Shown here piece after piece: positions 1 through 44,768 of a DNA stretch of 53,358 nucleotides (the first letter of the stretch is position 1; every line of letters begins with the position of its first letter). Source of the stretch: Actinokineospora pegani (GTDB lineage Bacteria; Actinomycetota; Actinomycetes; Mycobacteriales; Pseudonocardiaceae). Below the pieces are notes generated by a model that was given only the letters and a program-made list of their open reading frames with translations, ran no database searches and was not told where the DNA came from. The stretch spans positions 1 through 53,358 of the forward strand of contig NZ_WHOL01000072.1 of the NCBI RefSeq assembly GCF_009745975.1. The letters are read 5' to 3'. The position numbers were made by a program, and so were the translations under genes.

Positions 1-3000
1 CGGCGTTGTTCTGCAGCACGAGCATCACCTGGAACAGCGGGTGGTGCGCGGTCGAGCGGGCCGGGTTCAACTCCTCCACCAGCAGGTCGAATGGCAGGTC
101 CTGGTGCTCGAACGCGGCCAGGTCGGCGTCGCGCACCCGGGCCACCAACTCACCGAACGTCGGGTCACCGGAGACATCCGTGCGCAGCACCAACGTGTTG
201 ACGAAAAACCCGACCAACTCGTCCAACGCCTCATCCAGCCGGCCCGCGACAGCGGCGCCCACCGGGACGTCCTCGCCCGCGCCCATCTTCGACAGCAGCA
301 ACGCGAGCCCGGCCTGCACGACCATGAACACCGTCGCGCCGGTCGCCGAGGCCAGTGCCCGCAGCCTGGTCAGCGCGACCGCGTCGAGCACGAACGGCAC
401 GACGTCACCGAGGTGCGAGGCCGCGGCGGGCCGCGGCCGGTCGGTGGGCAGGGTCAGCACCTCGGGCGCCCCGGCGAGCGCTGCCCGCCAGAACGCCGTC
501 TGTGCCGGGCGCAGGCCGGCGAGCAGGTCGCGCTGCCAGAGCGCGTAGTCGGCGTACTGCACCGGCAGCGCGGGCAGCCCGGCCTCGTTCCCGGCGTAGG
601 CGGCGGCCAGGTCGCGCAACAGCGGCGCCATCGACCAACCGTCCCCGGCGATGTGGTGCACCAGCACGACCACCACGTGCTCACCCGGCGCGACGCGCAA
701 CACGGTGACCCGCACCGGCAGCTCGACACCGAGGTCGAACACGTGTCCGGTCGCGGTGTCCACAGCGGACTCCACAGCGTCCGGGGCGCAGTCGCGCACC
801 TCGACCACCGAACGCGCCCGCTCCACCGGCACCACCACCTGCACCGGCTCGCCGTCGACCGACGGGAACACCGTGCGCAGCACCTCGTGCCGGGCCACCA
901 CCCGCTCCACCGCCCGCGCCAGCGCGTCGACGTCGAGCCCGCCGGTCACCCGCAGGACGGTGGAGGTGTTGTAGGTGTGGCTGGTCCCCTCCAGCTCGGC
1001 CAGGAACCACAGCCTGCGCTGGGCGTACGACAGCGGCAGCACGTCCGGCCGGTGCTGTCGGACGAGCGCGGGCCGCACCGGCGCACCGGACAGTTCCGCC
1101 ACCCGCGTGGCCAGCCCGGCCGCGGTCGGCGCGCGGAACAGGTCGCGCACGCCCACCTCGACGCCGAGCATGGCCCGCACCCGGCCGATGAGCCGCACCG
1201 CCAGCAGCGAGTGGCCGCCGACCTTGAAGAAGTTGTCGGACGGCGCCACCGGGTGGCCCAGCACCTCGGCGAACAGACCGCAGAGGATCTCCTCCCGCGG
1301 CGTGCGCGGGGCACGGCCAGTGGCGGCGAGCTCGGACTCGGGCAGCGCACCCCGGTCGAGCGTGCCGTCGGCGGCGACCGGCATCCGCGCCAGCGGCACC
1401 ACCGCCGAGGGCACCAGGTGCTCCGGCAGGGCCCCCGCCGCCCAGGTCCGCAGGTCGCGGCCGACCACCGTCGAACCGGGCCGGGCCACGACGTAGGCCA
1501 CCAGTGCCCCGGTCCGCCTGGCCACCACAGCCACCTGGGCGACATCGGGGTGCCGCGCCAGCACGGCCTCAACCGCGGCGGGCTCCACCCGGAGCCCGCG
1601 GATCGTGACCTGCTCGTCCGCCCGCCCCACAAGGTCCAACACCCCGTCGGCCGTCCACCGCGCCAGGTCCCCGGTGCGGTGCATCCGCTCACCGGCCGCA
1701 CCCAGCGGGTCAGCGATGAACCGCTCCGCCGTCGCCCCGGGCCGTCCGGCGTATCCACGTGCCAAGCCGCCGCCGAGGTAGAGCTCGCCCACGACACCGG
1801 GGGCCACCGGCCGCAAGTGCGCGTCGAGCACGTAAACCCGCTTGTCGACCACGGCCCGGCCGATCGGCACGGCGCCGTCGACATCGGCGGGAACGGCGTG
1901 GGTCGTGGTGAGACCCGCCGACTCGGCAGGCCCGTACGCGTTGGCGACGCTCAGACCCGGGTGCCGGGCCAGGATGCGGGCGACGTGTGCGGCGGAGACC
2001 GCCTCGCCACCGGTGAAGACCGTCCTGACGCCGTCGAACGCCTCGGGGCACTCGTCGGCGAACTGGTTGAACAGGCTGGATGCCAGGTGGAGCATCGTCA
2101 CACCGTGGTCGGACACCAGTCGCCGCACCACCGCGGGCTCCGGCCGCTGCCCCGGGTACAGCACGCACGTGCCACCGAAGGCCAGCGCGCCCCAGAACTC
2201 CAGGGAGAATGCGTTCTGGGCCACCGGCGAGGACTGCAGGAACACCGCATCCGGCCCGAAGGCGGCGTACTGCTGTCCAAGCAGGCTGCCGACCACCGTC
2301 CGGTGGGTGGTCAAGACCGCCTTCCCGGAGGCGACCACGACACAGGCGAGGTCGTCCGGCGACAAGGGCAGGTTGAGATCCGCCTCGGACAGCTCGGGCA
2401 CCTGCGCGATGTCCACGGTCCTCGGCCCGCGCACCCGCTGCGCCAGCGTGGCGTCGGTGACGACCACACCGAGCCCGGTGTCGGCGACCAACTGGTCGGA
2501 CAAGCCCGGGTCGAGCACCGCGTATCCGGCGCCCGCCTTGACGACCGCGACCACCGCGACGGCGAGGTCGATGCCGCGTTCGATCAGCACGCCGACCACG
2601 TCGCCGCGCCGCACGCCCTGGTCGAGCAGGTGCCGGGCCAACCGGTTGGCCCGGGCGTTGAGCTCGGCGTAGCCCAGTCGCCCGTCGCCGGACACCAGCG
2701 CGTCGCCGACCCGGTGCCGCTGCACGAGGTCGACCAGCGTGACCCCGCCCAGCTCGACCGCCGCCGGGTTCCAGCCCGTGACGACCTCGTGCCGCTGCGC
2801 GGGGGTGAGCGCCTCGACCTCGGTGACCGGCCGCGCCGGGTCGGCGGCGACCTGTTCGAACAGGTGGGCCAGCGCCGCCGCGAACCGCTGCGCGGTGGTC
2901 CGGTCGAACAGGTCGGCCGCGTACTCGAGCACGCCCTCGACGCCGTCGGGGGTCTCGTGCACGGCCAGGGTGAGGTCGAACTTGGCCGTGCCGGTGGTGA

Positions 3001-6000
3001 ACGGCTCGTCGGTGGCGACCAGGTCGGCGAAGGCGGCGGGCGCGGGCGCGTCGTTGAGCAGCAGCATCACCTGGACCAACGGGTGCCAGGCCAGTGAGCG
3101 GGTCGGGTTCACCGCCTCGACCAGCGCCTCGAACGGCAGGTCCTGGTTGTCGAACGCGGCCAGGTCGGCGTCGCGCACCCGGGCCACCAGCTCGGTGAAC
3201 GTCGGGGCCCCGGAGACGTCGGTGCGCAGCACCAAGGTGTTGACGAAGAAGCCGACCACCTCGTCCAGCGCGGCGTCGGCGCGCCCGGCGACCACGGTGC
3301 CGATCGGCACGTCGTCGCCCGCGCCGAAGCGCGACAGCAGCAGCGCCAGCCCGGCCTGCAGCACCATGAACGGGGTCGCGCCCGCCTCGGTGGCGACCCG
3401 GCGCAGGGCGGCCTGGGTCGGCGCGTCGAGGGTGAACGGCACCGCGTCGCCGCGGAAGGTCGGCGCGGACGGCCGGACCCGGTCGTGCGGCAGCGCGAGC
3501 ACCTCGGGGGAGCCGTCGAGCGCGGCTCGCCAGAACTCCGTCTGGGCGGGGCCGATCTCGGCGAGCAGGCCCGCCTGCCACAGCGTGTAGTCCGCGTACT
3601 GCACGGGCTCCGCGTCCCACTCCGGGGCGCGCCCGCGCCTGCGAGCGGCGTAGGCGGTGGCGAGGTCGCGCAGCAACGGGCCCATGGACCAGCCATCGGT
3701 CGCGATGTGGTGCACCATCACCACGAGCACGTGCTCAGTGGGGCTGACCACGAACAGCCAAGCCCGCACCGGCAGGTCGGCGGCGAGGTCGAAGGTGTGG
3801 GTCAACGCGCAGGCCACCTCGGCGGGCACGGCCACCGCCGGGCAGTCGCGCACGGCCAGCTCCGGGACCGCGTCGACGCGGATCTGCTGGCGTGGCTCGC
3901 CGTCGATCGCCGGGTAGACGGTGCGCAGCGCCTCGTGGCGGGCGACCACGTCGCCCAGGGCCGCCGCGAGCGCGGCGGGGTCGAGGGCGCCGGTGAGTCG
4001 GCGGACCACCTGGACGTTGTAGGAGGTGCTCGGCCCCTCCATGCGGTCGACGAACCACAGCCTGCGCTGGGCCGAGGACAGCGGCAGCACCTCCGGCCGC
4101 TCCCCGACGACCACGGCCGGGCGGACGGGCGCGCCCGCCAGCTCGCCGATCCGGATGTCCAGCCCGGTGGGGGTCGGGCTGGCGAACAGGTCGCGAACGG
4201 CGACCTCCACGCCCAGCACCGACCGGATGCGCGACACCAGCCGCACGGCGAGCAGCGAGTGCCCACCGACCTTGAAGAAGTTGTCCGATGGGGCGACCGG
4301 GTGCCCGAGGGTGTCGCCGAACAGCCCGGCGAGGATCTCCGCCCGCGGCGACACCGACGCGGCCGCGGTGTCCACCTGGACGGTTTCGGCCTGGCGCGGG
4401 GCGAACCGGGAGCTCTCCTGCGCTGTCAGCGGCGCCAGGGAGTCCACGGTGGTCTCCACATCTCCCATGGCTGTCAGAACCCGTAGGTAGAGACCGGCGA
4501 TCGCCTCGACAGTGGGGGCGTCGAACAGGTCGGTGGCGTATTCGAACCACAGAGCCAGCCCGGCGTCGGTCTCGGTCGCCGACAGGGTCAGGTCGAACTT
4601 GGTCGAGGTCAGGTCGACCTGCTCCATCGCCGCGGGCACACCACCGAGCGCCAGTTCGGCCTTGGCGGTGTTCTGCAAGGTCAGCATCACCTGCACCAGC
4701 GGGTGCCAGGCGGGCGACCGGTCCGGGTTGACACCCTCGACGAGCAGGTCGAAGGGCAGCTCCTGGTGGTCGAACGCGGCCAGGTCGGCCTCCCGCACCC
4801 GGGCCAGCATCGCGCCCACGGTCGGGTCGCCGGAGGTGTCGGTGCGCAGGACGACGGTGTTGACGAAGAACCCGACCAGCTCGTCGAGAGCGCTGTCGCC
4901 CCGCCCCGCCACGGCGGTGGCGATCAGGACGTCGTCACCCGCGCCGAGCCGGGACAGCAGCACGCCAAGCCCCGCCTGCAGGGCCATGAACAGGGTCGCG
5001 CCCGCTTCGGCGGCGACCGCGGCGAGGCGCGTTGAGGCCGCCGAGTCGAGCGTGACCGCGAGGCCCTTGCCCGCGTGGGTCGGCGTCCGCGGCCGGGGGC
5101 GGTCAGTGGGCAGCGACAGCACGGTCGGCGCGCCGTCGAGAGCCGTGCGCCAGAAGTCGAGGTCCGTGGACCCGGCAAGCAGGTCACGCTGCCAGAGCGC
5201 GTAGTCGGCGTAGTGGACCGGCAGCGGCTCCCAGCGCGGGGCCGCGCCGAGACGGCGGGCGTCGTAGGCGGTGGCCAGATCACGCAGCAGCGGGCCCAAG
5301 GACCACCCGTCGGCGGCGATGTGGTGCAGCAGCACGACCAGCGTCGAACCGGTCAGCAGCGCGCGCACCGGCGGTTCGGTCGCCAGATCGAACGGGGTGT
5401 TGGCGAACTCGTTGACGTCCCCGGCCCGGACCAGCTCAGGCCGGACATCAGGGAGCACGACCTGGGCGGGCTCACCGTCGACCGACGGGTAGACGGTGCG
5501 CAGCACCTCGTGCCGGGCGGTGACGTCGGCCAGCGCGGACTCCAGCGCCACCGGGTCGACCGGCCCGCCGAGCCGCAGCACCACCGGGACGTTGTAGGAC
5601 GAGCTCGGGCCTGCCAGCCGGTCGACGAACCACAGCCTGCGCTGCGCGTACGACAGCGGCAGCGGGTCCGGCCGCCGCACCGGGGCCAGTGCGGGCCGCG
5701 CAGGCGCCCCGCTCAGCTCCCCCACCCGGGCGTCCAACCCCACCACCGTCGGCGAGCGGAACAGGTCGCGAACCCCCACCTCCACCCCGAGCACGGCCCG
5801 GACACGGCCGGTGAGCCGCACCGCGAGCAGCGAGTGCCCGCCGACCTTGAAGAAGTTGTCGGACGGCGCCACCGGGTGTCCCAGCACGTCGGCGAACAGA
5901 CCGCTCAGGATCTCCTGCCTCGGCGTCAGCGCGCGGTCTTCTCCCCCACTCTCCTGCGCCGACAGCCGCTCCACCACCGCCAGCGATTCCGCGCGCACCG

Positions 6001-7342
6001 CGGCGCGGTCGTCCACCAGCAGCAGGCGCTCCTCCTCGGTGAGCACGCGCAGGTCGGCCATCGTCGCCTCCGGCGTGGCGGCCATCGCCGCGAGGACGCG
6101 GCCGAAGACGTCGGCGAGCAGCTCGACGGTCCACTCGTCGAACAGGTCGGTCGCGTACTCGAACCAGGTGTCGAGCCCACCATCGGCGTTCTCCACGCAG
6201 GTGACCGACAGGTCGAACTTGGTCGACTCCAGCCGCGAGGGCTCCTCGACCGCGGTGAGGTTCGCGAAGTCGAGTCGGACGGCGGCGTTGTTCTGCAGGA
6301 CGAGCATCACTTGGACCAGCGGGTGCCAGGCCAGCGACCGCGCCGGGCTCAGCGCCTCGACCACCAGGTCGAACGGCAGCTCCTGGTGCTCGAACACGGC
6401 GAGGTCGGCGTCGCGGACCCGGTCGAGCAGCCCGGCGGCGCTCGGGGCGCCAGAGGTGTCGGTGCGTGTGACCACGGTGTTGACGAAGAAGCCGACCAGG
6501 TCGTCGAGGGCCTCGTCACCGCGCCCGGCAACCGCCGTGGCGATGGGGATGTCCTGACCCGCGCCCACCTGGTCCAGCGTCACCGCGAGACAGGCCTGCA
6601 ACGCCATGAACAAGGTGGCGCCACGCGAGCGGGCCAGCTCGGCCACCCCGCGGCGCACCTCGGCGCCGACGCTGTGGATGACCCGGCCGCCCCGGCCGGT
6701 GGGGTTCTGCGGACGAACCCGGTCCACCGGCAGCGGCAGCACCGGCGGTGCCCCCGCCAGCGCCGCACGCCAGAACGCCGCCTGCGCCCCGGCCAGCGAC
6801 AAACCATCCTCTTCGGACTCCAGGACTTCGCGCTGCCAGAGCGCGTAGTCGGAGTACTGCACCGGCAGCGGCTCCCACCCCGGGGCCGCGCCTGCCAGCC
6901 GCGCCGCGTAGGCCTGCGCCAGGTCCCGCAGCAGTGGCGCCATGGACCAGCCGTCAGCGGCGATGTGGTGCAACAGCACGACGAGCACGTTCTCCTCGTC
7001 GCCCACGCGGAACACCCGGGCCCGCACCGGGAGGTCCGAGGCGAGGTCGAACGCCTGGTTGGCGAAGTCCGCCACCTGCCGCCCGACCTCCGCCCCGTCG
7101 ACCACCTCGAACTCCGGCGCCGTCACCGGGAGCACGCGCTGGACCGGCTCACCGTCCACCGCCGGGTAGACCGTGCGCAGCACCTCGTGCCGGTCGACCA
7201 CGTCGGTCAGGGCCTCGCGCAGGGCGGCGAGGTCCAGCGCCCCGGTCAGCCGCAGCACGACCGGGACGTTGTAGGCGGAGTTGGGTCCTTCGAGCCTGTT
7301 CACGAACCACAGTCTGCGCTGCGCGTACGACAAAGGGAACAT
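1..7342 (-). CDS. NRPS with A-less modules, C-PCP-C-PCP-C-A*-PCP-C (partial, runs off left edge)
   Basis: At least 2447 residues of a peptide synthetase; the C-terminus lies outside the window. The start is ATG at 7342 with GGAGG six bases upstream, and the protein opens directly on a condensation domain. Order by approximate residue: C1 1-415, PCP1 470-535, C2 560-955, PCP2 1000-1060, C3 1088-1500, degenerate A 1515-2000, PCP3 2015-2075, C4 from 2095. All four C domains keep HHxxxDG and all three carriers keep the GGHS serine. Modules 1 and 2 have no A domain: the linker after C joins straight to the usual pre-PCP segment. The module-3 A domain looks dead (separate entry). It lies 45 bp behind the free-standing A-PCP gene, in the same operon. 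Inference: the carriers are charged in trans and the protein makes amide bonds without selecting substrates itself. Confidence 0.93.
1340..2800 (-). other. Degenerate (probably inactive) adenylation domain inside the NRPS
   Basis: This segment aligns along its length with the two intact A domains of the 11052-17102 NRPS, but three essential elements are changed. The A3 phosphate-binding loop, [10 protein letters not shown] in the sister domains, is reduced to ASGKA around 2318-2335. The Asp that anchors the substrate amino group (position 235 in GrsA numbering) is Asn, codon 2213-2215. The A10 catalytic Lys (GKLDR) is Thr (GTLDR), codon 1361-1363. Other cores such as RTGDL and YGPAE remain and the frame is open, so this is domain decay inside a living gene and not a pseudogene. 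From general A-domain enzymology, loss of any one of these would cripple adenylation. Confidence 0.88.
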
Positions 7343-7386: not shown

Positions 7387-9072
7387 TTATGCCTGAATGG
7401 TTTCGATGACCCGAGCCAGGTCACGCAGGCGGGGGTTCTGGTAGACCGCCTTGACCGGCAGCGCCACCTTCAACTCCGCCCGCACCCGGGCCACCAGCTT
7501 GATCGCCAGCAGGGAGTGCCCGCCCAACTTGAAGAAGTTGGCGTCGGCGGACAGGCCGTCGACACCGAGCACATAGGACCAGACCTCGGCGATCAACCGC
7601 TCCGCCGCGCTGTCCAGGCCTGAACCTGCTGTCTGCGCTGGAGTCGTCTCGGGCAGCGGCAGAAGTTCTCGATCGAGCTTGCCATTAACCGTTCGAGGGA
7701 AAGCGTTCACCTGAACGAGGACCGACGGGACCATGTACCTGGGCAGGACATCGGCGAGCCGACCAGCGAGGGCGTCGGCGGAAACGCTTGCGGTGGCACG
7801 GTAGTAGCCCACGAGCGCCGTCCCGCTCGGCAGGTCGTCGCGCAGCAGCACGGCCGACTCGACCACGTCGGGGCAGCGGGTCAGCGCCGCCTCGACCTCG
7901 CCGAGCTCGATCCGGTAGCCGTGCACCTTGACCTGGTTGTCACGACGGCCGATGTACTCGATGTCGCCGTTGGAACGCCTGCGCGCGAGGTCACCCGTGC
8001 GGTACACGCGCGAACCGTCCGGCCCGGCGACGAATCGCTCAGCGGTGAGACCCGGTCGATTGCGGTATCCGCGGGCGACGCGCGCGCCCCGAAGGTGGAT
8101 CTCACCGACTTCGCCGTCCTCGACCTGGCTGAGCTTCTCGTCGAGCAGCAGCAGATCGAGGCCGGGCAGAACGGTGCCGATGTGGGGGCTCTCCCCCTGC
8201 GCGATCCAACCTGCGGTGGCGTCGACAGTGCACTCAGTGGGCCCATAGAGGTTCACCGCCCGCACGTTCCGCAAAGACGCCATGCGCTCCCACAACGAGG
8301 GGCTGATCGGCTCGCCCCCTACAAGCAGCGTCAGCGGGCTCTCCAACTCGGTGAGCAGCGGAACAAGCGCCTCCGCGTGCGACGGGGTGAGGTCGAGGTC
8401 CGTGAGCCGCTGTTCGACAACCAGAGCGGCCATCAGCGCCGGGTCCGCGCGGGTCGCGTCGTCCAGGACGACCACCGCGTCACCCCGGCACAACCGGGTC
8501 CACTGCTGCACTGACGCGTCGAACGAGGCCGAGGCGTTCCACCCGACCCGCCCACCGTCGGTGGCCGAGATCCCAGCCTCCTCCAGGGCCTCGACCAGCA
8601 GGGCCGCGCTCCCCCGGGTGATCTCCACGCCCTTGGGCAGGCCCGTGGAGCCGGAGGTGTAGATGACGTACGCCAGGTTCCCCGGGCTGACCTCGACCGG
8701 GGTGAACTCCGCGCTGTGCCCCGCGCCGAGGTCGACGACGCTGACCGCCTCGACCTCACCGGCGGGCTCGCCGATGAGCAGGTCGGCGCGGGCGTCGGCG
8801 ACCAGGTAGCGGCGGCGCTCGGCGGGCAGCGCCGGGTCGACCGGCAGGTAGGCGGCGCCCGCGGTGAGCGCGCCGAGCAGGGCGACGACCAGGTCGGTGC
8901 CGCGCGGGAGGCTGATCGCGACCAGGCTCTCCCGGCCGATGCCCCGCGCGGTCAGCGCGCCCGCGATCCTGGCGGCCTCGGCGCGCAGCTCACCGAAGGT
9001 CAGCTCGCGCCCATGGGCGACGAGGGCGGGCCGGTCCGCGGGGACGGCGGCGAGTCGGGTGATGAGGTCCAT
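7387..9072 (-). CDS. Free-standing NRPS adenylation-carrier didomain (A-PCP)
   Basis: 561 residues. An intact A domain (about 1-475) with the [11 protein letters not shown] loop, RTGDL and catalytic NGKLDR is followed by a PCP (about 490-560) with GGHSLL. Read by eye against GrsA numbering the specificity code is D-A-Q-D-L-G-L-V-D-K, one position from the textbook glutamine code, so Gln or a related residue is the best guess. There is no C domain. The gene starts 2 bp after the stop of the hydroxylase gene and ends 45 bp before the A-less NRPS. Inference: it charges its own PCP, where the hydroxylase may act, and supplies aminoacyl groups to the NRPS modules lacking a working A domain. Kutzneride assembly is a known precedent for a free-standing A domain serving a module with a defective one. 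Confidence 0.9.
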
Positions 9073-9073: not shown

Positions 9074-10102
9074 TCAGGCCCCGTACCGGGTCGTCGAGGG
9101 CTGCGCGGTGGGCGCGCAGTCGGCCAGCGCGACCGGGTCGCCCATGCCGACCACGATCTTGCGGGCGCCGGTGAAGGCCTCGCGGCCGTGCGCGCACAGG
9201 ATGTTGTCGACCAGCAGGAGGTCGCCCGCCTGATAGGTCTCGCGCATGGTCACCTTGTTGTAGACCTCGTTGAGCGCTTCAGCCTCCTCACGCGTGAGCG
9301 CGGTGCCGTCACCGACATAGGTCGCGAACGGGAGGCCGTCCTCCCCGTAGGTCTCCACGAGGACATCGCGGATGTCGGGGTCCAGGCTCCAGGAGTTCCA
9401 GAAGGCCATGTGGTTGAACCACACCCGGTCGCCGGTGACAGGGTGGGTCACGACCGCGGAGCGGCGCTGGGTGGTGCGGAAGGAGTCCTCGTCCACCCAC
9501 TCGTAACCGATGGTGTTCTCCGTGCAGTAGGCCTCCGCGACCGCCTTGTCCTCGGTGGCGAAGGAGGTCTGCCACGGCAGGCCGGCCATCTCGGAGTAGT
9601 TGCGCACGAGCAGCCAGCCCATCTTCTCGCAGCGCTCACGCAGGTCCTCGGGCAGCAGCGCGAGGGCCTTGCGCATGTCGCCCACGGTGGTGGCGCCGCC
9701 GGTCTCAGGGGCGATGAGGCAGCCGAACAGCAAAGCGCCGGGGAAGTCCAGGGTGTAGCTGTTCTCGTTATGCAGGCGGATCGGCTGGACCGCGGGGAGG
9801 TCGGTGGAGGAGAAGACCCCGTCCCCGAAGTCGGACCGCGGGGTGGCCTTCTCCTTGTAGTTGGCGCGCTTGGGGAAGAGGACGTCACGCACCGCCGCGA
9901 ACGCCTCGTTGGTGGTGACCGGGAGACCGCGCAGCATCAGGCAGCCGGAGCTGAGCAGCTCGGCGCGGATCGCGGGGAGGGCGCCGGTCACCCAGCGCAC
10001 CGCCTCGTCCAGGTCCGCGGTCACGGGGGCGGTGGCGATCGGGGGCTTGCCGGGTTCGCGGCTGACCTCCAGCGCACGCACCGAGTTGTCGAGGGATGTC
10101 AT
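9074..10102 (-). CDS. TauD/SyrP-like Fe(II)/2-oxoglutarate dioxygenase, probable carrier-bound amino acid hydroxylase
   Basis: 342 residues starting at ATG 10102, preceded by an AGGAGAGGAA ribosome site. The iron facial triad is visible as H111-x-E113 and H305, and R314 fits the 2-oxoglutarate anchor. An HNE first motif (Glu, not Asp) is typical of the SyrP group, which beta-hydroxylates aminoacyl-S-PCP. The gene lies between the type II thioesterase (20 bp) and the A-PCP didomain (2 bp), so the A-PCP-bound amino acid is the likeliest substrate. Together with the Gln-like code this suggests a beta-hydroxylated Gln/Glu-type residue. The position of hydroxylation is inference. Confidence 0.85.
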   Translation of the reverse strand: MTSLDNSVRALEVSREPGKPPIATAPVTADLDEAVRWVTGALPAIRAELLSSGCLMLRGLPVTTNEAFAAVRDVLFPKRANYKEKATPRSDFGDGVFSSTDLPAVQPIRLHNENSYTLDFPGALLFGCLIAPETGGATTVGDMRKALALLPEDLRERCEKMGWLLVRNYSEMAGLPWQTSFATEDKAVAEAYCTENTIGYEWVDEDSFRTTQRRSAVVTHPVTGDRVWFNHMAFWNSWSLDPDIRDVLVETYGEDGLPFATYVGDGTALTREEAEALNEVYNKVTMRETYQAGDLLLVDNILCAHGREAFTGARKIVVGMGDPVALADCAPTAQPSTTRYGA

Positions 10103-10122: not shown

Positions 10123-10881
10123 TCAGCCGAGCAGGCTCTGGACGACCTGGCCGACCCGCGCGAGGAACGGGGGCAGGTCCTGCTGGAAGTAGAAGTGGTC
10201 CCCGGCGAACATCTCGACGTGCGCCGACGCCGAGGTCGAGGTGGCCCACTGCGGCAGCGTCGCCACCGGGACGATCGGGTCGGCGTCGCCACCGAACACG
10301 GTGACCGGGCAGGTCAGCGGGGTGGTCGGGCCGGTGTAGCGGTAGACGTCGTCGATGCCGAAGTCGGCCCGGATGGCCGGGACGATGATCTCCCGCAGCT
10401 CCGGCTCGTCGAGGATCTCGTCCTGGGTGCCGCCGCGGGCCTTGATGGCCGCCACCAGCTCGTCGTCGTCGAGGCGCTCGGCGCGCACCGGGGCGGGGTT
10501 GGCCAGGTGCGGGGCGCGGCAGGCGCTGACGATGAGGCCCTTGGGCGGGGTGCCGCGCTCGGTGAGCAGCCGGGCCACCTCGAAGGCGACCAGGGAGCCC
10601 ATCGAGTGCCCCAGCACCACCAGGTCGCCGGTGTCCTCGGGCAGGCAGTCGACGACTGGGCCCGCCAGGTCGGCCACGCTCTCGGGCAGGTCGTCGACGA
10701 AGCGGGCGCCCCGGCCCGGGTATTGGCCGATGAGCAGCCGCAGGCTCTCCGGCAGGTGCTCCCGCCACTCGGCGTAGGCGTGGGCGTTGCCCCCCGCGTG
10801 CGGGAGCACGAGCAGGTCCGCGGTACCGGTGCCGAGTGCCCAGACCACGTCTTCGCGGTCGGCCATCGTGGGCGCGCTCAT
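10123..10881 (-). CDS. Type II thioesterase
   Basis: 252 residues, alpha/beta-hydrolase fold. The nucleophile elbow is GHSMG, a PHAGG oxyanion-loop motif stands near residue 27, and a late GDHF supplies the histidine. The start is ATG 10881 with GGAG seven bases upstream. Enzymes of this family clear misprimed or stalled carriers in NRPS/PKS systems, and some move aminoacyl groups between carriers. It is the first gene of a close-packed run with the hydroxylase, A-PCP and A-less NRPS, so editing or shuttling for that trans-loading line is the likely role. Confidence 0.92.
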   Translation of the reverse strand: MSAPTMADREDVVWALGTGTADLLVLPHAGGNAHAYAEWREHLPESLRLLIGQYPGRGARFVDDLPESVADLAGPVVDCLPEDTGDLVVLGHSMGSLVAFEVARLLTERGTPPKGLIVSACRAPHLANPAPVRAERLDDDELVAAIKARGGTQDEILDEPELREIIVPAIRADFGIDDVYRYTGPTTPLTCPVTVFGGDADPIVPVATLPQWATSTSASAHVEMFAGDHFYFQQDLPPFLARVGQVVQSLLG

Positions 10882-11051: not shown

Positions 11052-14000
11052 TCAGATGGTTGTCTGCGTCCTGCGGCGGAGCATGGGCCTGCGCGTGGGC
11101 TTGCCCTTCGTGTCGATGACCTCCGCGAGCTGCGCGACGGTGGGGGCCTTAAAGATGTCCCGGATCGTCAGCTCGACGTCGAGTGCGTTGCGGACCCTGC
11201 TGATGAGGCGGGCGCCAAGCAGTGAGTGGCCCCCGAGGTCGAAGAAGCTGTCGTCGATGGTGGGGGTCTCTATGGACAAGAGTTCGGCGTAGAGCGCGCA
11301 CAGGACTGTCTCGCGCGGGGTGCGGGCCGCACGCCCCCCGGCGTTGCCGTGCAACTCGGGTTCGGGGAGGGCTTTGCGGTCCAGCTTGCCGTTGGGGGTG
11401 ATGGGGATGCGGTCGAGGACCGTGATGGCGGAGGGCACCATGTGCTCCGGGAGCCGGTCCGCGGCCCAGGCGCGAAGCTGCCTGCCGGTCGTGCTGCCGA
11501 CGACGTAGGCGACCAGGCGGGCCGGCCCGTCGGAACGCCAGGCGAGGACGGCAGCCTGGGTGGTGCCCGGGTGGGCGGTCAAGACGGCCTCGACCTCGCC
11601 GGGTTCGACCCGGAACCCGCGGATCTTCACCTGGTCGTCTGCCCGACCGACGAAGTCCAACACCCCGTCAGCAGTCCACCTGGCCAGGTCACCCGTGCGG
11701 TACATGCGCTCACCGGGCGCGCCCAGGGGATCAGCCACGAAACGCTCAGCCGTGATCCCTGGACGCCCCGCATACCCCCGTGCAAGACCGACGCCACCCA
11801 GATAGACCTCTCCGACGACACCGGGCTGGACGGGGTGCAGCCACTTGTCGAGCACATAAGCGCGCTTGTTGGCGACAGCGCGCCCCACGGGAACAGGCCC
11901 CTCGATGTCCGCGTGCGCGGTGTGGGTAGTGGTGAAACCCATCGACTCGGCGGGCCCATAGCCGTTGGAGACGGTGAGACCAGGGTGTTTCGCGAGGATG
12001 CGGGCGACGTGGACCGCAGAGGCCGCCTCTCCGCCGGTGAAAGCGATGCGCAGCGGTGCGAACGCTTGCGGGCACTCGTCGACCAGATAGTTGAAGAGGC
12101 TGGACGACACCTGCAGCATCGTCACCCCATGCTTGCCCACCAGGTCTGCGACCACCGCGGGCTCGGGCCGCTGCCCCGGGTGCAGGACACACGTCCCCCC
12201 GAAGGCGAGGGCGCCCCAGAACTCGAGCGAGAACGCGTCCCACGACACCGGCGAGCACTGCAGGAAAACCTCATCCGGCCCGAAGGTCGCGTACTCCTGG
12301 CCCAGCAGCGTGCCCACGAGCGCGCGGTGTGGAGCGACCACGCCCTTGGGGCGGCCAGTGGACCCGGACGTGAACATCACGCAGGCGACATCCGCGGGCG
12401 AGATGTCGATGTCGAGATTCGCTGTCTCGCCCTCGCTCGGTTCCAACACTGGCTCGACGGTGACCCGCCCCTTGAGGCCCTCGGTCGTGACCACCACCCC
12501 CACCCCGGTGTCCGCGACGACCACGGCGAGCCGGTCATCCGGGAAATCGGGGTCCAGCACGGTGTACCCCGCTCCGGCCTTGACCACCGCGACGACGGCG
12601 ACGGCGAAGTCGATGCCCCGCTCGACGAGCACGCCGACGACATCCCCTCGTTTCACACCTCGACCCATGAGATGCCGGGCGAGCCGGTTCGCCCTGGCGT
12701 TGAGCAGCCGGTAGGACAACTCCTCGCCGTTGAACACCAGCGCCGTCCGGTCGCTGTCGGCCACCTGCTCGAACAGCTCAACCACCGTGGCGTCAGCGAT
12801 GTCGACCGGGGCGGGGTTCCATTCCCCGACAACGATCCCGCGCTGTGCCTCGTCGAGCACGACGACCTCGCCCACGCGCCGCCCCGGATCATCCGCGACC
12901 TGGTCGAGGACGCGGGCCACCGTGGCGGTGAGGCGCTCGACGGTGGGGGCGTCGAAGACGTCGGTGTTGAACACGACCACGCCGGTCATGTCCTCGCGCA
13001 GCAGGAACTCCAGGTCGAACTTCGCCGAGCCGGTCTCGGCGTAGGCCATGCCCTCGGGCGGCGTGCCCTCCAGCGCGAGGCAGACCTGGAACAGCGGGTG
13101 GCGGGCTAGCGACCTGGCCGGGTTGACCGCATCAATCACCCGATCGAATGGGATCTCCTGGTGGGAGTAGGCGTCCAGCCCGGTCGAGCGGACCCGGCGC
13201 AGCAGTTCGGCGAAGGTCGGGTCGCCGGAAGTGTCGGTGCGCAGAACTAGCGTGTTGACGAAGAATCCAACCAGATCGTCCACGGTGGACTCGGGACGAC
13301 CGGCGACAGGGGAACCGATGGGGATGTCCTCGCCCGCACCCAAGCGGGTCAGCGTCAGCGCGAGCACGGCTTGCGCGACCATGAACGGTGTGGCGCGGTG
13401 CGCTGCCGCCAGCGCGGCGACCCGCTCCGCGTCCAAGGCGAACGGGATGGTCGCGCCCCGGTGCGAGCGGACCGGTGGTCGTGGCCGGTCGAAGGGCAGC
13501 GCGATCGCTTCGGGGAGGTCGTCGAGCGCTTTCCGCCAGAAGTCGAGACCGCGCGCGACCACGCTGCCCGGATCGTCCTCGGAGCCGAGGAGTTCGCGGT
13601 GCCACAGCGTGTAGTCGACGTAGGAGACGGGCAGTTCGGCCCACTGCGGCTCGTCACCCCGGCAGCGCGCCGCGTAGGCCGTGCGCAGGTCTTCCAGCAG
13701 CGGGCGCACCGACAGGCCGTCGGTGGTGATGTGGTGCAGCAGGATCAATACCCGGTCGGGGAACAACGTGACGCGGATGGGCGGTTCCACCGCCAGGTCG
13801 AAGCGGTGCTTGGCCGCGTCCTCGTCCTGCTCGCTTACCTGGAAGACGGTTGGGCCAGGCTCCGGCAGCACATGCTGGAACGGCTCGTCCCCGGCCATGG
13901 GGAAGACCGTGCGCAACGGTTCGTGCCGCATGGCGACGTCCCGGACGGCGGCGGCGAGCGCGTCGGTGTCGACCGGTTCGGTGAGCGGGAAGAGCATCGG

Positions 14001-17000
14001 CACGGTGTAGGCGGCGCCCGCTCCGTCGAACCGGTCGAGGAACCACAGCCTGCGCTGGGCGGCGGACAGTGGCGGGCGCCGTGGTCGGTCGGCGCGCACG
14101 AGCGCGGGCCGGTCCTGGGCGGTGACGTTCAGGTGCGGGTCGAGCGCGGCGACGGAGGGCGACTGGAACACGTCCCGGATGGTCAACTCGACGCCCAGGG
14201 CCTCGCGCACTCGCGCGACGAGCCGGGCGGCCATGAGCGAGTCGCCCCCGAGGTCGAAGAAGCCGTCGTCAACGGTCACCGCGTCGACCCCGAGCACCGC
14301 GGCGAAGAGACCGCAGAGGATCTCCTCACGCGGAGTGCGTGGGGCGCGGCCCGTGCAACCGGCGGTGAAGTCGGGCGCGGGCAGGGCCCGCCGGTCGAGC
14401 TTGCCGTTCGGGGTGAGCGGCAGCCGGTCCAGCACGACGACGGCCGCGGGCACCAGGTGGTCCGGCAGCCGAGCGGCCGACCACTCGCGCAGGGTCGCCC
14501 CGTCGACCGCACCCACGGCGTAGGCGACGATCCGGTCCGGGTCGCGCTGGACGACGATCGCGACCTGGGTGACCTCGGGGTGGCGGACCAGGACGGCCTC
14601 GACCTCGGCAGGTTCGACCCGGAACCCGCGCACCTTGACCTGGTCGTCCACCCGCCCGACGAAGTCCAGCACCCCGTCGGGGGCCCACCGGGCCAGGTCC
14701 CCGGTGCGGTACATCCGCTCCCCCGGCACGCCGAACGGGTCGGCGACGAACCGCTCGCCGGTCAACCCGGGCCGGGCAGCGTACCCCCGGGCCAGGCCGA
14801 CGCCGCCCAGGTACACCTCGCCCACCACTCCGGCCGGTGCGGGGCGGAGGCGGTCGTCGAGCACGTAGGCCCGCTTGTTGACCACCGCACGGCCGATCGG
14901 GACCGCCCCTTCGACGTCCGCGGGCACGGTGTGGGTGGTGGTGAAGCCCATCGACTCAGCGGGCCCGTAGCCGTTCGCCACGCTCAGCCCCGGGTGCGAG
15001 GCGAGCGCCCGCGCGACGTGCACGGCGGAAGCAGCCTCACCGCCGGTGAAGGCCAACCGCACACCGTCGAACGCGCTCGGGTACTCGTCGACGAGGAAGT
15101 TGAACAAGCTGGACGAGACCTGGAGCATCGTCACCCCGTGCCGTCCCACCAGGTCGGCGATCACCCCGGGGTCGGGGCGCTGGCCGGGCTGGAGCACGCA
15201 GGCGCCGCCGAAGGCGAGCGCTCCCCAGAACTCGAGCGAGAACGCGTCCCACGACACCGGCGAGCACTGCAGGAACACCTCATCCGGCCCGAAGGTGGCG
15301 TACTCCTGCGCGGCCAACGTCCCCACCAGGGCGCGATGCGGGGCCAAGACCCCCTTGGCGCGCCCGGTGGAGCCGGAGGTGAACATGACGCACGCGACAT
15401 CGTCGGCGGTGGCGACCATCCCCGGGTTGGTCCCGTCCCGGCCCTGGTCGACCACCACGACGGCAGAGGCCAACCCCTCCGCGCGGTCGCACTGCGCCGC
15501 ATCGGCCACGATGAGCCGCACCCCGGCATCGGCGACGACGACACCCAGTCGCTCGTCCGGGAACTCCGGGTCCAACACCGCGTACCCAGCGCCTGCCTTC
15601 ACAACGGCGACGACCGCGACAGCGAAGTCGATCCCGCGCTCGGCGAGCACACCGACCAAGTCCCCACGCTCGACCCCGGCCGCGCGCAGTCGCTGGGCGA
15701 GGTGGTTGGCGCGGGCGTTCAAGTCCCGGTAGGAAACCCGATCGGCGCCGAAGACCAGGGCGGTGGCGTCGGTGTCGGCCACGCGCTCGAACAGCTCGAC
15801 CAGGGTGACGTCCTCGGCCGGGGCAGGCCGGGGGTTCCACTCGCGCAAGACTGTTTCCTGCTCGGCGGCTGTCAGGGCGTCGATGTCGGCGACGCGCACG
15901 TCGGGGTCGGCCGCGAGCGCGCCGACGATCTCGCGGAACGCGCTCAGGTGCGCCCGGAGATCGACCGGCAGTGCCTCGTCGACGGAGAACTCCACCCGCA
16001 AACCGCCCGCGAACCGGGTCACCATCACGGCCATCTCGTCACCGGTGCCGCCGATGGCGACGACCCGCGCCCGTGCCGCGACACCGTCGAACTCGATGCC
16101 CTGGGCGTCGGTAAGGATGTTGACCACCGGCCCGAACTGGCGGCGGCCCAGCTCCCGCAACAGCACGGCCGGGTCGAACCGCTGGTGCCGCTGCACCAAC
16201 CGCACCTCGCCCGCCACGGCCGCGGCGAGGTCCGCGGCCCGGCAGGCGGGGTCAACGGGCACTCGCAACGGCATGACGGTCGACGACATCCCCGCCGCCG
16301 ACCGCGCCCGCGCCGACCCCCGAATGCTGACCGGCAGGCTGAGCAGCACATCCCTGTCACCGGTCCACAGGTAGCGGTGCAGCACAGCCGCCGTGACGAT
16401 GGCCTGCCGCCACGTCACTCCCGCGCGCTCCGCGAACGCCCGCAGACCGGCGAAGACCTCGTCGCCGAACTCGGCGCCCACCCGCGTGCTGCGGCCGCTC
16501 AAGGGCTGCTCGCCCCACGACACCGCCGCAGGCGCGTCGGCCACCCGCCGTCGCCAGAACTCGGCGTCGGCGGCCTGCTCGGCCGACCCGTCGTACTCGT
16601 CGTAGTCGTCCAGCACATGGGCGAAGGTGGCGATCGGCTCGCCCTCACCCCGGTACACCTCAGCCAGCCGCCGCCACATCAGCAACTGGGAGTGCCCGTC
16701 GTGAACGGTGTGGTGAAAGCGCTTGTGCCAGTAAACCCGGTCATCGGCGAGCCGGAGGAGGCAATGTCGGAACCGCGCACCCGCCCCGGTCTCCAAGTCG
16801 TTGAGCATGAACTCGTGCGCGGCCGCCGCCGAATCCGCCTCGCCCCGCAGGTCGATCACCTCCGGCTCGGCACCCACCACCACCCCGAACTCCTGCACCG
16901 GCTCCCCATCAACCTCTCGGAAGCGCAACCACAAAGCGTCGTTCTCCGCCGCGACCACCCTCGCCGCTTCCCGCAGCCGCCCCAGATCCACGGCCCCCCG

Positions 17001-17102
17001 CACCTCGAGGTACCCGCCGACGTTGAACGCCGGACTGGCCGGATCAAGCCGCTGCGCGAACCAGATGCCCCGCTGAGCCGGAACAAGCCGCCGCCCTGCC
17101 AT
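11052..17102 (-). CDS. NRPS, two modules, C-A-PCP-C-A-PCP
   Basis: 2016 residues. The chosen start is ATG 17102, with GGAGG seven bases upstream; the frame is open a further 73 codons upstream but shows no homology there. Domains by approximate residue: C1 1-405 (FHHTVHDG), A1 425-905, PCP1 930-990 (GGDS), C2 1005-1410 (HHITTDG), A2 1425-1905, PCP2 1935-2000 (GGHS). There is no E or TE domain, and the protein ends on the carrier. Both A domains are intact (TSGSTG loop, RTGDL, NGKLDR). Both give the same by-eye code, D-A-L-Q-F-G-G-G-F, which I cannot match to a known substrate, so the two modules probably add the same amino acid. The opening C domain implies an acyl or peptidyl donor from elsewhere. 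Confidence 0.95.
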
Positions 17103-17734
17103 GAGAACCCTCCGCTGCTCAAAGTCGGCGCCGGCCCACAAACCAGTCGGCGCCCCGGTCAACCCGCATTCGCGGTCGGATATCAGGACCACAGCCCTGC
17201 GCCGCCCCAGTGAACCGTCCCCCAAGCCCCCCAACCGGCAGTCCCACCGGCACTTGACAGGCGGCTCAAGCAGCCTCAAACCGCCCACCCGCTCCACGCC
17301 CGACCCGCCCAACAAGCTCAAGGAAGCCCAACAAGCTCACCCATCCACGCAGCCAAACCATGCCCACCCCGGCTGCAAGCAAGCACCATGCCGACACTTG
17401 CAGCCAACACCACCCGCAACACTCAAGACCCGCGAACCTCACACCAAGCCGACAATCGCCCACCGCACGCAGCGACACCGCATCCCACACAACCGTCCGA
17501 CAATCGCTCCCGTACTCATGAGCACCACGCCGACAGCTCGAGCAGCACTGATCGCGACACCTGCCAACCATCCACCACCCGCAGCAACACCACATCCGCC
17601 GAAGCAGGCCGCGCCCCAACAACCCAGCCGCAAGCACCGAACCGACAACCCCAACCGATATCGCCCGCACAACCCAACACGCGGACGCCACCCACCACAC
17701 GCGACCAGAAGCAGTCGCGCACCAACCACCCCAC
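17103..17734. other. 632-bp intergenic region with extreme A+C bias on the + strand
   Basis: No convincing gene. It must hold the promoter of the NRPS gene starting at 17102. From about 17270 the + strand is strikingly rich in C and A. The 11-mer CCGACAATCGC occurs twice, at 17449-17459 and 17497-17507. Long open frames exist on both strands but they translate to low-complexity Pro/His/Thr or Trp/Cys/Val-rich sequence with no family resemblance. Confidence 0.5.
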
Positions 17735-26068: not shown

Positions 26069-27556
26069 TCAGACGGGCGCACCCGCGGGGTGCAACTGGT
26101 CGGCCACGGCGGCCCAGAGGGAGCCGGGGCTGGCGAAGGCGTCGGGGGTGAGCACGTCGTCGGAAATGGTCACGCCGTAGGCGTTCTCCAGCAGCACGAG
26201 CAGCTCCACGGTGGCCAGCGAGTCCAGGCCCGCCGCGCGCAGGCTGGTGTCGGCGGCGACGGAGGCGGTCAGGCGGGGCAGGGCGGCGCGCAACTGCGCC
26301 TCGAACTCGGTGTCCCACGGCATGGGCTGGGTTCCTTTCTCGGTGAGGGGTTCGCGCGCGAGGCGCAAGCGGGACGCGTGCAGGACCTGGTCGCCGCGGA
26401 GGAGGACCTCGGCGGGGGCGGGCCTGCTGAGGAAGCCGATGAGGCTGGCGGTGAGGCCGTAGGCGCCGACGTTCGGGATCTCCAGCAATTGCCCGGGTTC
26501 GGCGGGGGGAAGGGTGGCGTGGCGGTTGACGATGTCGGCGGGGGTGCACAGCGGGCCGACGAGGGTGGTGGTGACCGGGTCGCCGGTCGCGGGGGTGACC
26601 GGGCGGGCGGTCATGGGGCGCAGGCGGCCGATGCCGGAGAGCCCGCCGAGGTGGTGGATGCCGGTGTCCAGCACGGTGTAGGTGCCGGGGCCGCTGGCCT
26701 TGACCTCGGTGACGGTGCACAGCAGGGTGCCGCTGTCGCCGACGAGGTAGCGGCCGGACTCGAAGACCAGCTCGAAGCCGGGTGAGCGCCAGGCCGGGAA
26801 GTGCTCGTCCAGCGCGGCCTCCAGCGGGGCGCGCAGCGTGGTGTAGACCGGCCGCCGCCCCGGCCCGGCGTACGGGGTGGAGAAGCCGCCGCCGAGGTCG
26901 AGGTGGGTGACCTCGAGGCCCCACCTGGCGGCGAGGTCGGCGGCGACGCCCACGCTGCCGAGCAGCTCGGCGCGCAGGGTGTCCTCGTCGGGGCTGTTGG
27001 TCAGCGGGTAGAAGTGGAACCCGCGCACGGTGGCCCCCGGCACGGCCAGGTCGGCGCCGGTGACCTCGGGGTTGGCGGCGATGTCCAGGCCGAACTGGGA
27101 GGGCTGGCCGGTCATCCGCAGACCGGCGCCGCCCGCGTTCGACGGCGGGTTGACCCGCAGCAGGCAGGTGGCGTGCGCGTCGAAGCGCAGCGCGACCGCG
27201 CCGACGCGGCGCAGGTCGGCCAGCGACTCCACGGAGAAGGCGCGCACGCCCGCGGTGAACGCGGCCGTCAGCTCGGCGACGGTCTTGCCCGGTCCGCCGT
27301 AGAGGCAGTCGGCCCCGGCGAACCCGGCGGTCAGGGCGCTGGCCAGCTCGCCTGCGGAGGTGAGCTCGACCCGGCAGCCCGCGCCGCGCAGCACGCGGAC
27401 CAGCTCGGGGTGCGGGTTGGCCTTGAGCGAGTACATGACCACGGCCCCGGTCGGCAGCGCGGCGCGCAGGTCGGCGGCGGCGGCCTCGACCTTCTCGGCG
27501 CGGTAGAGGTAGAGCGGGCTGCCGTAGCGGTCGACGAGGTCCTCAGCGGTGAGCAC
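26069..27556 (-). CDS. PLP-dependent carrier-bound amino acid decarboxylase fused to an acyl carrier protein
   Basis: 495 residues. Residues 1 to about 400 form an alanine-racemase-fold (ODC/DAP decarboxylase) enzyme: YSLKANP with the PLP lysine near 46, DLGGGFSTPY near 235, FESGRYLV, and GPLCTPAD carrying the second-subunit cysteine. From Met 412 a complete carrier protein follows, with GLDSLATVELL as the phosphopantetheine site. The junction contains AAAGGA and an in-frame ATG at 26323, as if two adjacent genes had merged. The start GTG 27556 (GGGAGG six bases upstream) overlaps the ligase stop by 14 bp. Relatives such as VinO and BtrK decarboxylate amino acids on a carrier; here the carrier is built in. 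Expected product: beta-alanyl, GABA-type or similar omega-aminoacyl-ACP. The substrate is unknown. Confidence 0.88.
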   Translation of the reverse strand: MLTAEDLVDRYGSPLYLYRAEKVEAAAADLRAALPTGAVVMYSLKANPHPELVRVLRGAGCRVELTSAGELASALTAGFAGADCLYGGPGKTVAELTAAFTAGVRAFSVESLADLRRVGAVALRFDAHATCLLRVNPPSNAGGAGLRMTGQPSQFGLDIAANPEVTGADLAVPGATVRGFHFYPLTNSPDEDTLRAELLGSVGVAADLAARWGLEVTHLDLGGGFSTPYAGPGRRPVYTTLRAPLEAALDEHFPAWRSPGFELVFESGRYLVGDSGTLLCTVTEVKASGPGTYTVLDTGIHHLGGLSGIGRLRPMTARPVTPATGDPVTTTLVGPLCTPADIVNRHATLPPAEPGQLLEIPNVGAYGLTASLIGFLSRPAPAEVLLRGDQVLHASRLRLAREPLTEKGTQPMPWDTEFEAQLRAALPRLTASVAADTSLRAAGLDSLATVELLVLLENAYGVTISDDVLTPDAFASPGSLWAAVADQLHPAGAPV

Positions 27557-29054: not shown

Positions 29055-29102
29055 GTCAGCACTCCGTCTTGTCGCGGTTTTCTGCCGCCACTTTCGACGA
29101 GC

Positions 29103-29126
29103 GGGCTAGGACGCTCCTTAAGCGCG
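29103..29126 (-). promoter_or_regulatory. CGCTTAAG-type site (a), before the ligase operon and divergent TetR gene
   Basis: On the minus strand the octamer CGCTTAAG is followed by GAGCG and TCCTAG, giving an imperfect palindrome (TAAGGA-GCG-TCCTA). It is 49 bp from the ligase start and lies in the gap shared with the divergent TetR gene at 29265. It is one of four such intergenic sites in the window. Confidence 0.6.
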
Positions 29127-29187
29127 GCCTACGAGCCGCCCTCTTTGCCGCGCAACGCTTTCCGAGCCGCTGCCCGCGGTGGGCATC

Positions 29188-29216
29188 TTGACAAAACCTC
29201 ACCCAGCTATTCTACT
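29188..29216 (+). promoter_or_regulatory. Sigma70-like promoter for the first TetR gene
   Basis: TTGACA at 29188-29193, a 17-nt spacer, then TCTACT at 29211-29216, with a start codon at 29265. TAGC-N6-GCTA at 29217-29230 would overlap the transcription start and is a candidate operator. Confidence 0.6.
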
Positions 29217-29230
29217 TAGCCAAAGAGCTA
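29217..29230. promoter_or_regulatory. TAGC-N6-GCTA inverted repeat at the TetR promoter
   Basis: A short inverted repeat directly downstream of the predicted -10 box of the TetR gene. AGCTAT occurs on both sides of the promoter. It is a possible autoregulatory site. Confidence 0.3.
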
Positions 29231-29264
29231 TGACCAATATCAAACCAGCCGGGGGTCACGAGCC

Positions 29265-34788: not shown

Positions 34789-34812
34789 GGTCGAGACTGG
34801 GTGGGAGCACCA

Positions 34813-36102: not shown

Positions 36103-36127
36103 GCCCAACCCCGTCTAGGAGAGGCTG

Positions 36128-37345: not shown

Positions 37346-37370
37346 GAGCGGTGCTGGCGCGGCCCCGGGC

Positions 37371-37985: not shown

Positions 37986-38000
37986 GAACGCGAATTGTAT

Positions 38001-38016
38001 GCGAGCTATCGCTCGC
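38001..38016. promoter_or_regulatory. TetR operator candidate GCGAGC-TATC-GCTCGC
   Basis: A perfect 6-bp inverted repeat with a 4-bp spacer in the 46-bp divergent gap between the third TetR gene and the MpaB-like gene. The size and placement suit a TetR dimer. It differs from the CGCTTAAG sites, so a separate switch is likely. Confidence 0.65.
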
Positions 38017-38031
38017 GTCACAGTGGAGGGC

Positions 38032-44483: not shown

Positions 44484-44494
44484 GGACGCCCGCC

Positions 44495-44767: not shown

Positions 44768-44768
44768 C

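What the first reader, a model, noticed from the sequence alone, without database searches (positions are those of the whole stretch)
1..7342. One NRPS shows stepwise loss of adenylation domains: two excised, a third triply disabled
Modules 1 and 2 are C-PCP with the A domain cleanly missing between the post-C linker and the pre-PCP segment. Module 3 still has an A domain, but it lacks the STGRA part of the A3 loop, has Asn for the substrate-binding Asp, and Thr for the A10 Lys. All C-domain HHxxxDG motifs and carrier serines are kept, so the line appears under selection while substrate selection has been outsourced. Having both excised and decaying states in one protein is unusual. One trans-acting A protein feeding three carriers would predict a repeated residue in the product.
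Basis: partly seen in the sequence, partly recalled or inferred. Interest (0 to 1): 0.75.

Follow-up and report, generated by a model that had tools for sequence, protein, structure and literature searches.

The report
Peptide module switched to shared loader
In this soil-bacterium relative, one step of a peptide-making assembly line has lost its own amino-acid loader and had its docking domain overwritten by a copy from a neighbouring loader-less step, so it is probably now fed by one shared loader protein and makes a changed product.

Summary
The gene (7342→2) encodes C-T, C-T, C-A*-T, C…; A* lacks five A3-loop residues, has Asn for Asp235 and Thr for the A10 Lys. The contig cuts the gene; two contigs sharing an exact 241-bp end complete it: C-A-T, C-A-T-TE.

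In Actinokineospora spheciospongiae the same line (76% identical) also lacks A in modules 1-2, but its module-3 A is intact. So the A-less modules are older and only A* died recently; 'two excised' is not shown.

Two further results. (1) The window's module-3 carrier is a chimera: over 90 nt it differs from the module-1 carrier at 4 positions, while module-1 carriers of the two species differ at 16: gene conversion. (2) Carriers of A-less, relic or dead-A NRPS-B modules read FF[K/R] (61 of 61), carriers with an intact A never (0 of 42); the window's converted carrier has K. In 23 readable related clusters the corresponding module's A is intact (1), full-length but dead (4), internally deleted (1), a relic (16) or absent (1). 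Best reading: module 3 switched from its own A to the Gln/Glu-coded A-T protein.

The parts
2..7342 (-). NRPS-B, 5' part of the gene: C1-T1-C2-T2-C3-A*-T3-C4(cut); continues on contigs C71 and C70
   Evidence: Open frame 2447 codons, Pfam, 241-bp exact contig overlaps
1..241 (-). Stretch of the fourth C domain identical to both ends of contig C71 and the start of C70; where the assembly broke
6026..7339 (-). C domain of module 1
5708..5953 (-). Carrier T1 (A-less module 1), FFK signature, donor of the conversion (tract about 5807-5908)
4403..5671 (-). C domain of module 2
4133..4375 (-). Carrier T2 (A-less module 2), FFK signature
2786..4096 (-). C domain of module 3
1343..2755 (-). A*, dead adenylation domain of module 3; pocket reads NALHFGAGLT
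2300..2344 (-). A3 loop with 5 residues missing
2192..2218 (-). Asn in place of substrate-binding Asp235
1595..1618 (-). A8 motif, Thr for Lys
1352..1369 (-). A10 motif, Thr for catalytic Lys517
1088..1330 (-). Carrier T3; chimera, tract about 1184-1285 converted from T1; FFK signature where the orthologue has FFA
7387..9072 (-). Stand-alone A-T protein (561 aa), pocket DAQDLGLVDK (Gln/Glu type)
9074..10102 (-). TauD-family Fe(II)/2-oxoglutarate oxygenase (342 aa)
10123..10881 (-). Type II thioesterase, GHSMG
11052..17321 (-). NRPS-A, C-A-T-C-A-T; both A pockets DALQFGGGFK, the pocket the intact module-3 A also has

Best explanation
Module 3 of this NRPS has moved from cis-loading by its own A domain to trans-loading by the stand-alone A-T protein that already served modules 1 and 2. 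In the ancestor shared with A. spheciospongiae, module 3 had a working A domain with the same pocket as the two A domains of NRPS-A. In the window's lineage a short gene conversion copied the loop and Ser region of the module-1 carrier into the module-3 carrier, giving it the FF-Lys signature, and the module's own A domain lost its A3 loop, Asp235 and catalytic lysine. Predicted outcome: one A-T protein (Gln/Glu code), with the TauD enzyme hydroxylating the residue, supplies three consecutive positions, so the product differs from that of A. spheciospongiae at one residue. The dead A domain stays on as a partly constrained spacer. Shown: the lesions, the intact orthologue, the converted tract, the carrier signature, and parallel decay in Streptomyces. 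Inferred: recognition by the A-T protein, substrate, hydroxylation, product, order of events, and whether the A domain loads the carriers directly or through its own T.
For: Intact module-3 A in the sister species. T3-T1 differ at 4 of 90 nt, T3-T2 at 17, orthologous T1 pair at 16; the only carrier pair of 21 per genome with a 75-nt window at 93% or more. FF[K/R] in 61 of 61 carriers of A-less, relic and dead-A NRPS-B modules and 26 of 26 of the A-T protein itself, 0 of 42 with intact A, 0 of 18 in the A-less module that follows a displaced A domain; outside the family 4 of 432 (all R) and 0 of 2 A-less. Carrier tree groups the window's T3, not its orthologue, with A-less carriers (support 0.983). 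A-T pocket matches a published Glu/Gln code. Nocardiopsis ATB16-24 has three clean A-less modules with FFR carriers beside the same A-T protein. Streptomyces G502, G800 and G810 lost the same A motifs in a separate A lineage and have FFR.
Against: No loading, activity or product data. The carriers compared are related, so the counts are not independent. Conversion occurs elsewhere in these genes (C and A domains), so T3 could have been hit by chance. The C domain of module 3 shows no sign of change (it groups with its orthologue, support 1.0), so its acceptor preference may still be for the old residue. The pairwise dN/dS of A* (0.33) is not clearly above its neighbours (0.11-0.40). In the carrier tree the clade of A-less carriers also holds the 18-type carriers without K/R, and the Streptomyces relic carriers fall outside it.
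Confidence: 0.68

Rival explanations
1. One of the NRPS-A A domains, which have the pocket that the intact module-3 A has, loads the module-3 carrier in trans; A* decayed because it was redundant and the product is unchanged.
For: Identical pocket DALQFGGGFK in A1, A2 and the orthologous module-3 A; precedent in capreomycin, where CmnA-A1 loads A-less CmnI (PMC12400406, passages).
Confidence: 0.13
2. The line is in decay: module 3 is no longer loaded, is skipped or blocks the line, and the carrier conversion is a coincidence.
For: A* is dead and conversion is not unique to T3 in these genes.
Against: About 4400 codons stay open over three contigs; C, T and TE domains have dN/dS 0.11-0.37; relatives with the same module dead keep the line and its signature.
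Confidence: 0.11
3. A* is active after all, or the lesions are sequencing or assembly errors.
For: One assembly only; the A7 TGD is intact and Pfam still scores the domain at 177 bits.
Against: Four separate in-frame lesions at conserved positions; 13 of 67 otherwise invariant columns affected; a similar set of lesions in an independent lineage.
Confidence: 0.04

Closest known systems
Inactive A domain complemented by a stand-alone [A-T] protein: albicidin Alb04, cystobactamid, ramoplanin, enduracidin, naphthyridinomycin (PMC8949500, section 4.1 read)
   Same: A dead A domain inside a multimodular line, a stand-alone A-T protein in the cluster
   Different: Here three adjacent modules share one A-T protein, two of them A-less; the A-T protein has neither the alpha-ANH-like extension of albicidin nor the 300-residue N-terminal extension of ramoplanin and enduracidin (Pfam A domain starts at residue 8); a carrier conversion marks the switch
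Syringomycin SyrB1/SyrB2/SyrC/SyrE (same section)
   Same: A-T protein with a tailoring oxygenase-type partner feeds an A-less C-T module
   Different: TauD enzyme rather than the SyrB2 halogenase; three served modules instead of one; the neighbouring hydrolase has a Ser nucleophile, whereas SyrC is recalled to use Cys
Capreomycin CmnI/CmnA-A1 trans-iterative A domain (PMC12400406, passages)
   Same: One A domain serves more than one carrier
   Different: There the A belongs to another module; here a dedicated stand-alone A-T protein is present
Fungal siderophore synthetases SidD, SidC, sib1 (PMC10192304 and PMC2644324, passages)
   Same: A-less T-C units, an A domain lacking about 290 N-terminal residues, a degenerate A, one A loading several carriers
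   Different: Loading there is ascribed to an A domain of the same protein; carrier conversion is not mentioned in the passages seen
Kutzneride KtzN with KtzO/KtzP (recalled; the six papers listed hold the name KtzN 0 times)
   Same: As recalled: stand-alone Glu-type A protein plus TauD-like hydroxylases serving a module with a defective A
   Different: Not checked here

Membership tests
NRPS module complemented in trans by a stand-alone A-T protein | C and T present, functional A missing in the served module | tested here: met
NRPS module complemented in trans by a stand-alone A-T protein | Stand-alone A-T protein encoded in the same cluster | tested here: met
   window 7387-9072; A-T protein found next to TauD in the readable relatives
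NRPS module complemented in trans by a stand-alone A-T protein | The A-T protein charges the carrier of the served module | not testable with these tools
   Needs a loading assay; only the FF[K/R] signature and the conversion speak for it
Albicidin/cystobactamid subtype | alpha-ANH-like extension between A and T of the A-T protein | tested here: not met
   561 aa with only AMP-binding, AMP-binding_C and PP-binding
Ramoplanin/enduracidin subtype | About 300-residue N-terminal extension of the A-T protein | tested here: not met
   Pfam A domain begins at residue 8
Syringomycin SyrC-type shuttle | Cys-nucleophile aminoacyltransferase (recalled) | tested here: not met
   GHSMG in the window and in 8 of 8 relatives compared
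Capreomycin-type trans-iterative A domain | A-less module served by the A of another module, no stand-alone A-T protein needed | tested here: inconclusive
   A stand-alone A-T protein exists, but NRPS-A A1/A2 share the old pocket
Functional NRPS adenylation domain (for A*) | A3 loop, Asp235, A10 Lys517 | tested here: not met

The most novel reading that the evidence does not exclude
NRPS modules can change substrate without any change of specificity in an A domain: the carrier is overwritten by a short conversion from a trans-served module, a basic residue right after the FF of the carrier (FF[K/R]xGGHS) acts as the address read by the stand-alone A-T protein, and the now useless A domain decays through a repeatable series (motif loss, internal deletion, C-terminal relic, complete loss) seen at the corresponding module in Actinokineospora, Streptomyces and Nocardiopsis.
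Probability: 0.45. Interest if true: 0.78.

Novelty: new variant of a known kind. Interest (0 to 1): 0.62.

Why it matters
What makes a carrier domain accept a trans-acting A domain is, to my knowledge, an open question, and NRPS engineering mostly swaps A domains. Here two sister species differ by a dead A domain and a carrier tract of roughly 90 nt, and one residue separates the carriers of modules without a working A of their own in NRPS-B (61 of 61 K/R) from those with an intact A (0 of 42) and from other A-less modules (0 of 18) in the family. That makes carrier recognition directly testable with two point mutants. I found no description of this cluster family, of a carrier conversion of this kind or of this signature in nine library searches (listings and the passages named in the report), which cover only openly licensed PMC papers.

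Tried and rejected
Rejected: (1) recent loss of A from modules 1 and 2: they are A-less in the sister species, and the first NRPS-B module is A-less in 23 of 23 readable clusters. (2) A SyrC-like shuttle: the hydrolase has a Ser nucleophile. (3) Pairwise dN/dS as proof of relaxation: 0.33 for A* is within the range of its neighbours; the relative-rate test and invariant-column count carry that point. (5) Repair of the A. spheciospongiae module-3 A by its conversion tract with NRPS-A A2: the tract (columns 954-1392) covers A7 and A8 but not the A3 loop, Asp235 or A10. (6) A blastn scan for conversion tracts was too coarse and missed T1-T3; replaced, which did not include the carrier of the A-T protein. 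(7) The first pocket read-out of the A-T protein was an alignment gap; 26 of 26 read FDASVQQW. (8) tRNA and Rfam scans of the window: nothing. (9) Plasmid search with the A-T protein: all 2436 records with a match below 60% identity. (10) Search for a hydroxyglutamine peptide from Streptomyces: one marine antiviral review.
Full report
WHAT IS THERE. The window is a whole contig (C72) of a 6.44-Mb genome. The same-genus genome G004 holds the best relative on a 78,323-base contig, the length and content of NZ_AYXG01000016.1 of Actinokineospora spheciospongiae EG49 (L039), so the window is taken to be an Actinokineospora. The finding's gene is on the minus strand and runs off the contig: C1-T1, C2-T2, C3-A*-T3, C4 cut. 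Upstream in the same direction lie a stand-alone A-T protein, a TauD-family oxygenase, a type II thioesterase and NRPS-A (C-A-T-C-A-T).

THE REST OF THE GENE. The first 241 bases of the window are identical to both ends of the 3334-bp contig C71 and to the start of C70. A path that uses both ends of C71 is C72, C71, C70; it gives C-A-T and C-A-T-TE and an open frame of 4391 codons. A short MbtH-like frame follows on C70 (read by eye, not scanned). The A. spheciospongiae gene has the same five modules in one 4520-codon frame. How many copies of C71 the true genome holds is not proved.

CHECK OF THE LESIONS. A* lacks five residues of the A3 loop and has Asn for Asp235, Thr for the A8 Lys and Thr for the A10 Lys; its pocket reads NALHFGAGLT against DALQFGGGFK in the orthologue. 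It is changed or gapped at 13 of 67 columns invariant in the other 12 aligned A domains. Relative-rate counts put 51-78 changes on the window side and 18-31 on the other, by outgroup; the other five A pairs are balanced except NRPS-A A1, which leans to the window with two of three outgroups (43:21, 40:23, 27:29). On a tree A* has branch length 0.32 and its orthologue 0.12.

THE SISTER SPECIES. In A. spheciospongiae modules 1 and 2 are also A-less and module 3 has an A domain with every motif present. The tree puts the module-3 A beside NRPS-A A2 (support 0.952), so it is a paralogue of the NRPS-A domains.

THE CARRIER. The orthologous module-3 carrier reads [22 protein letters not shown], like carriers with their own A. 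The window's reads [21 protein letters not shown], the same as T1 and T2 of the window. Over 90 nt T3 and T1 differ at 4 positions, T3 and T2 at 17, the T1 pair of the two species at 16. Outside the tract the ungapped identity to T1 is 0.31-0.58 upstream (partly out of register) and mostly 0.7-0.9 downstream. A 75-nt window at 93% or more occurs for no other pair of NRPS-A and NRPS-B carriers in either genome (21 pairs each); such windows also occur for C4/C5 and NRPS-A A1/A2 in the window species, and for C4/C5, module-3 A with NRPS-A A2, and NRPS-A A1/A2 in A. spheciospongiae. So conversion happens in these genes, but among carriers it is seen only here. That the window, not A. spheciospongiae, holds the derived carrier is inferred from the intact A of the latter.

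THE SIGNATURE. I classed 148 carriers from the family by architecture. The residue after FF is K or R in 26 of 26 carriers of the A-T protein itself, 41 of 41 A-less NRPS-B modules, 17 of 17 modules with an A relic (one of them the internally deleted G646) and 3 of 3 with a full-length dead A. It is D, A, T, H or G in 42 of 42 modules with an intact A; the 43rd C-A-T carrier is the window's T3, with K. In Streptomyces a further A-less module follows on a separate protein that, as a rule, starts with its own A domain; there it is S, T, D or A in 18 of 18. Outside the family, 4 of 432 carriers with an A (8 of them without a readable motif) have R and none K, 5 carriers after a partial A have A or E, and 2 A-less carriers have A; this used 117 of the 120 proteins listed out of 7947 matches, three rows of the window and A. 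spheciospongiae being dropped. Two Actinokineospora genomes with the TauD but no A-T protein have 0 of 8. These sequences are related, so the counts are not independent events. In the carrier tree the window's T3 groups with A-less carriers (0.983); the Streptomyces relic carriers fall elsewhere with weak support, and the 18-type carriers fall inside the A-less group, so the tree alone does not define the signature.

THE SERIES. TauD at 63% identity or more was found in 4 of 390 genomes of the window's family, 23 of 392 drawn from the genus of G150 (Streptomyces litmocidini) and 3 of 40 of the genus of G154 (Nocardiopsis), in three more Streptomyces and, by score, in S. otsuchiensis L027: 34 clusters. 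Two (G005, G007) have no A-T protein. Nine could not be judged at the key module: seven end too early (G571, G574, G605, G853, G151, G155, L027) and two are full of frame breaks (G156, G831). In the other 23 the A of the last served module is intact in 1 (A. spheciospongiae), full-length but dead in 4 (window, G502, G800, G810), internally deleted in 1 (G646), a C-terminal relic in 16, and absent in 1 (Nocardiopsis sp. ATB16-24). The 15 relics measured are 101-168 residues with linkers (G766 not measured). The first NRPS-B module is A-less in 23 of 23, with a second clean one in 15. G502, G800 and G810 have lost the A3 loop, Asp235 and the A8 Lys and have Arg at the A10 Lys, in another A lineage: convergence. 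Equating these modules rests on position and on the grouping of their C domains (0.943); concerted evolution within each genus blurs strict orthology. In 13 pairs of relatives the dead or relic A stretch has dN/dS 0.22-0.68, above the preceding C domain in 12 and equal in 1 (G646/G601), and below 1 in all. I read this as a dead enzyme kept as a spacer; the high G+C makes the method rough.

HOW IT PROBABLY WORKS. The A-T protein has the pocket DAQDLG[L/V]VDK once an alignment gap is corrected; DAQDLGVVDK is given for both Glu and Gln (PMC12283262, passages). Its TauD neighbour is nearest by sequence in the PDB to At3g21360 and the recent TauD/TfdA-like entry 9yut and reads H-N-E at the presumed metal site (motif recalled), so beta-hydroxylation of loaded Gln/Glu is an inference. 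The module order predicts X-X-Q*-Q*-Q*-Val-like-unknown in the window species against X-X-Q*-Q*-X-Val-like-unknown in A. spheciospongiae, X being the unassigned DALQFGGGFK residue (Val-like for DALW[I/V]GGVFK is recalled). The key step, charging of T3 by the A-T protein, rests on the conversion and the signature. Whether K/R contacts the A domain, and whether residues pass through the A-T protein's own carrier, is open. The C domain of module 3 is unchanged, which could work against the new residue; the Streptomyces relic modules also keep C domains of the cis-type group.

WHAT IS KNOWN. Inactive A domains complemented by stand-alone A-T proteins are described for albicidin and others (PMC8949500, section 4.1 read); one A serving an A-less module in capreomycin (PMC12400406, passages); truncated or degenerate A domains with A-less units in fungal siderophore synthetases (PMC10192304 and PMC2644324, passages). 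A review of A domains (PMC11253843, passages) showed nothing on this. Kutzneride KtzN is recalled only. New, as far as nine searches show, are the sister-species pair, the carrier conversion and the signature.

VERDICT.

Noticed in passing
L029 17798-21748 and relatives (Slit, Snym, G502, G646 and others): In Streptomyces the next protein starts with an A domain placed before C-T (order A-C-T-C-A-T); in three species its A3 motif reads TSGSTGTPNG with Asn for Lys.
   Followed up: partly
L027 (S. otsuchiensis), end of contig: The second NRPS-B module begins an A domain that already looks degenerate where the contig ends; possibly an earlier decay stage.
   Followed up: no
L159/L190 (G007) and L160/L191 (G005): Same TauD type (63-65% identical) in Actinokineospora NRPS clusters with intact A domains and no A-T protein downstream.
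   Followed up: partly
G004:C16, module-3 A and NRPS-A A2: Conversion tract between these two A domains in A. spheciospongiae, covering A7 and A8.
   Followed up: partly
window 1-241 with C71 and C70 ends: Identical 241-bp stretch in the C domains of modules 4 and 5, the cause of the assembly break.
   Followed up: yes
window 14229-14249: First NRPS-A carrier reads GGDSLMA, against GGHSLLA in A. spheciospongiae.
   Followed up: no
window 26069-30871: Decarboxylase-carrier fusion, adenylating enzyme and KAS III in a row; similar frames lie at the far end of the A. spheciospongiae contig by eye, not compared.
   Followed up: no
window 34801-51663, + strand: P450, FAD monooxygenase, MPAB-type oxygenase, fatty-acyl-AMP ligase, acyl-CoA dehydrogenase domains, KS-AT-ACP polyketide synthase, KAS III-like and E2-like genes: perhaps a second cluster.
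   Followed up: no
L113, L116, L120: Three distant TauD homologues (46-48% identical) in the window's family carry one in-frame TGA.
   Followed up: no
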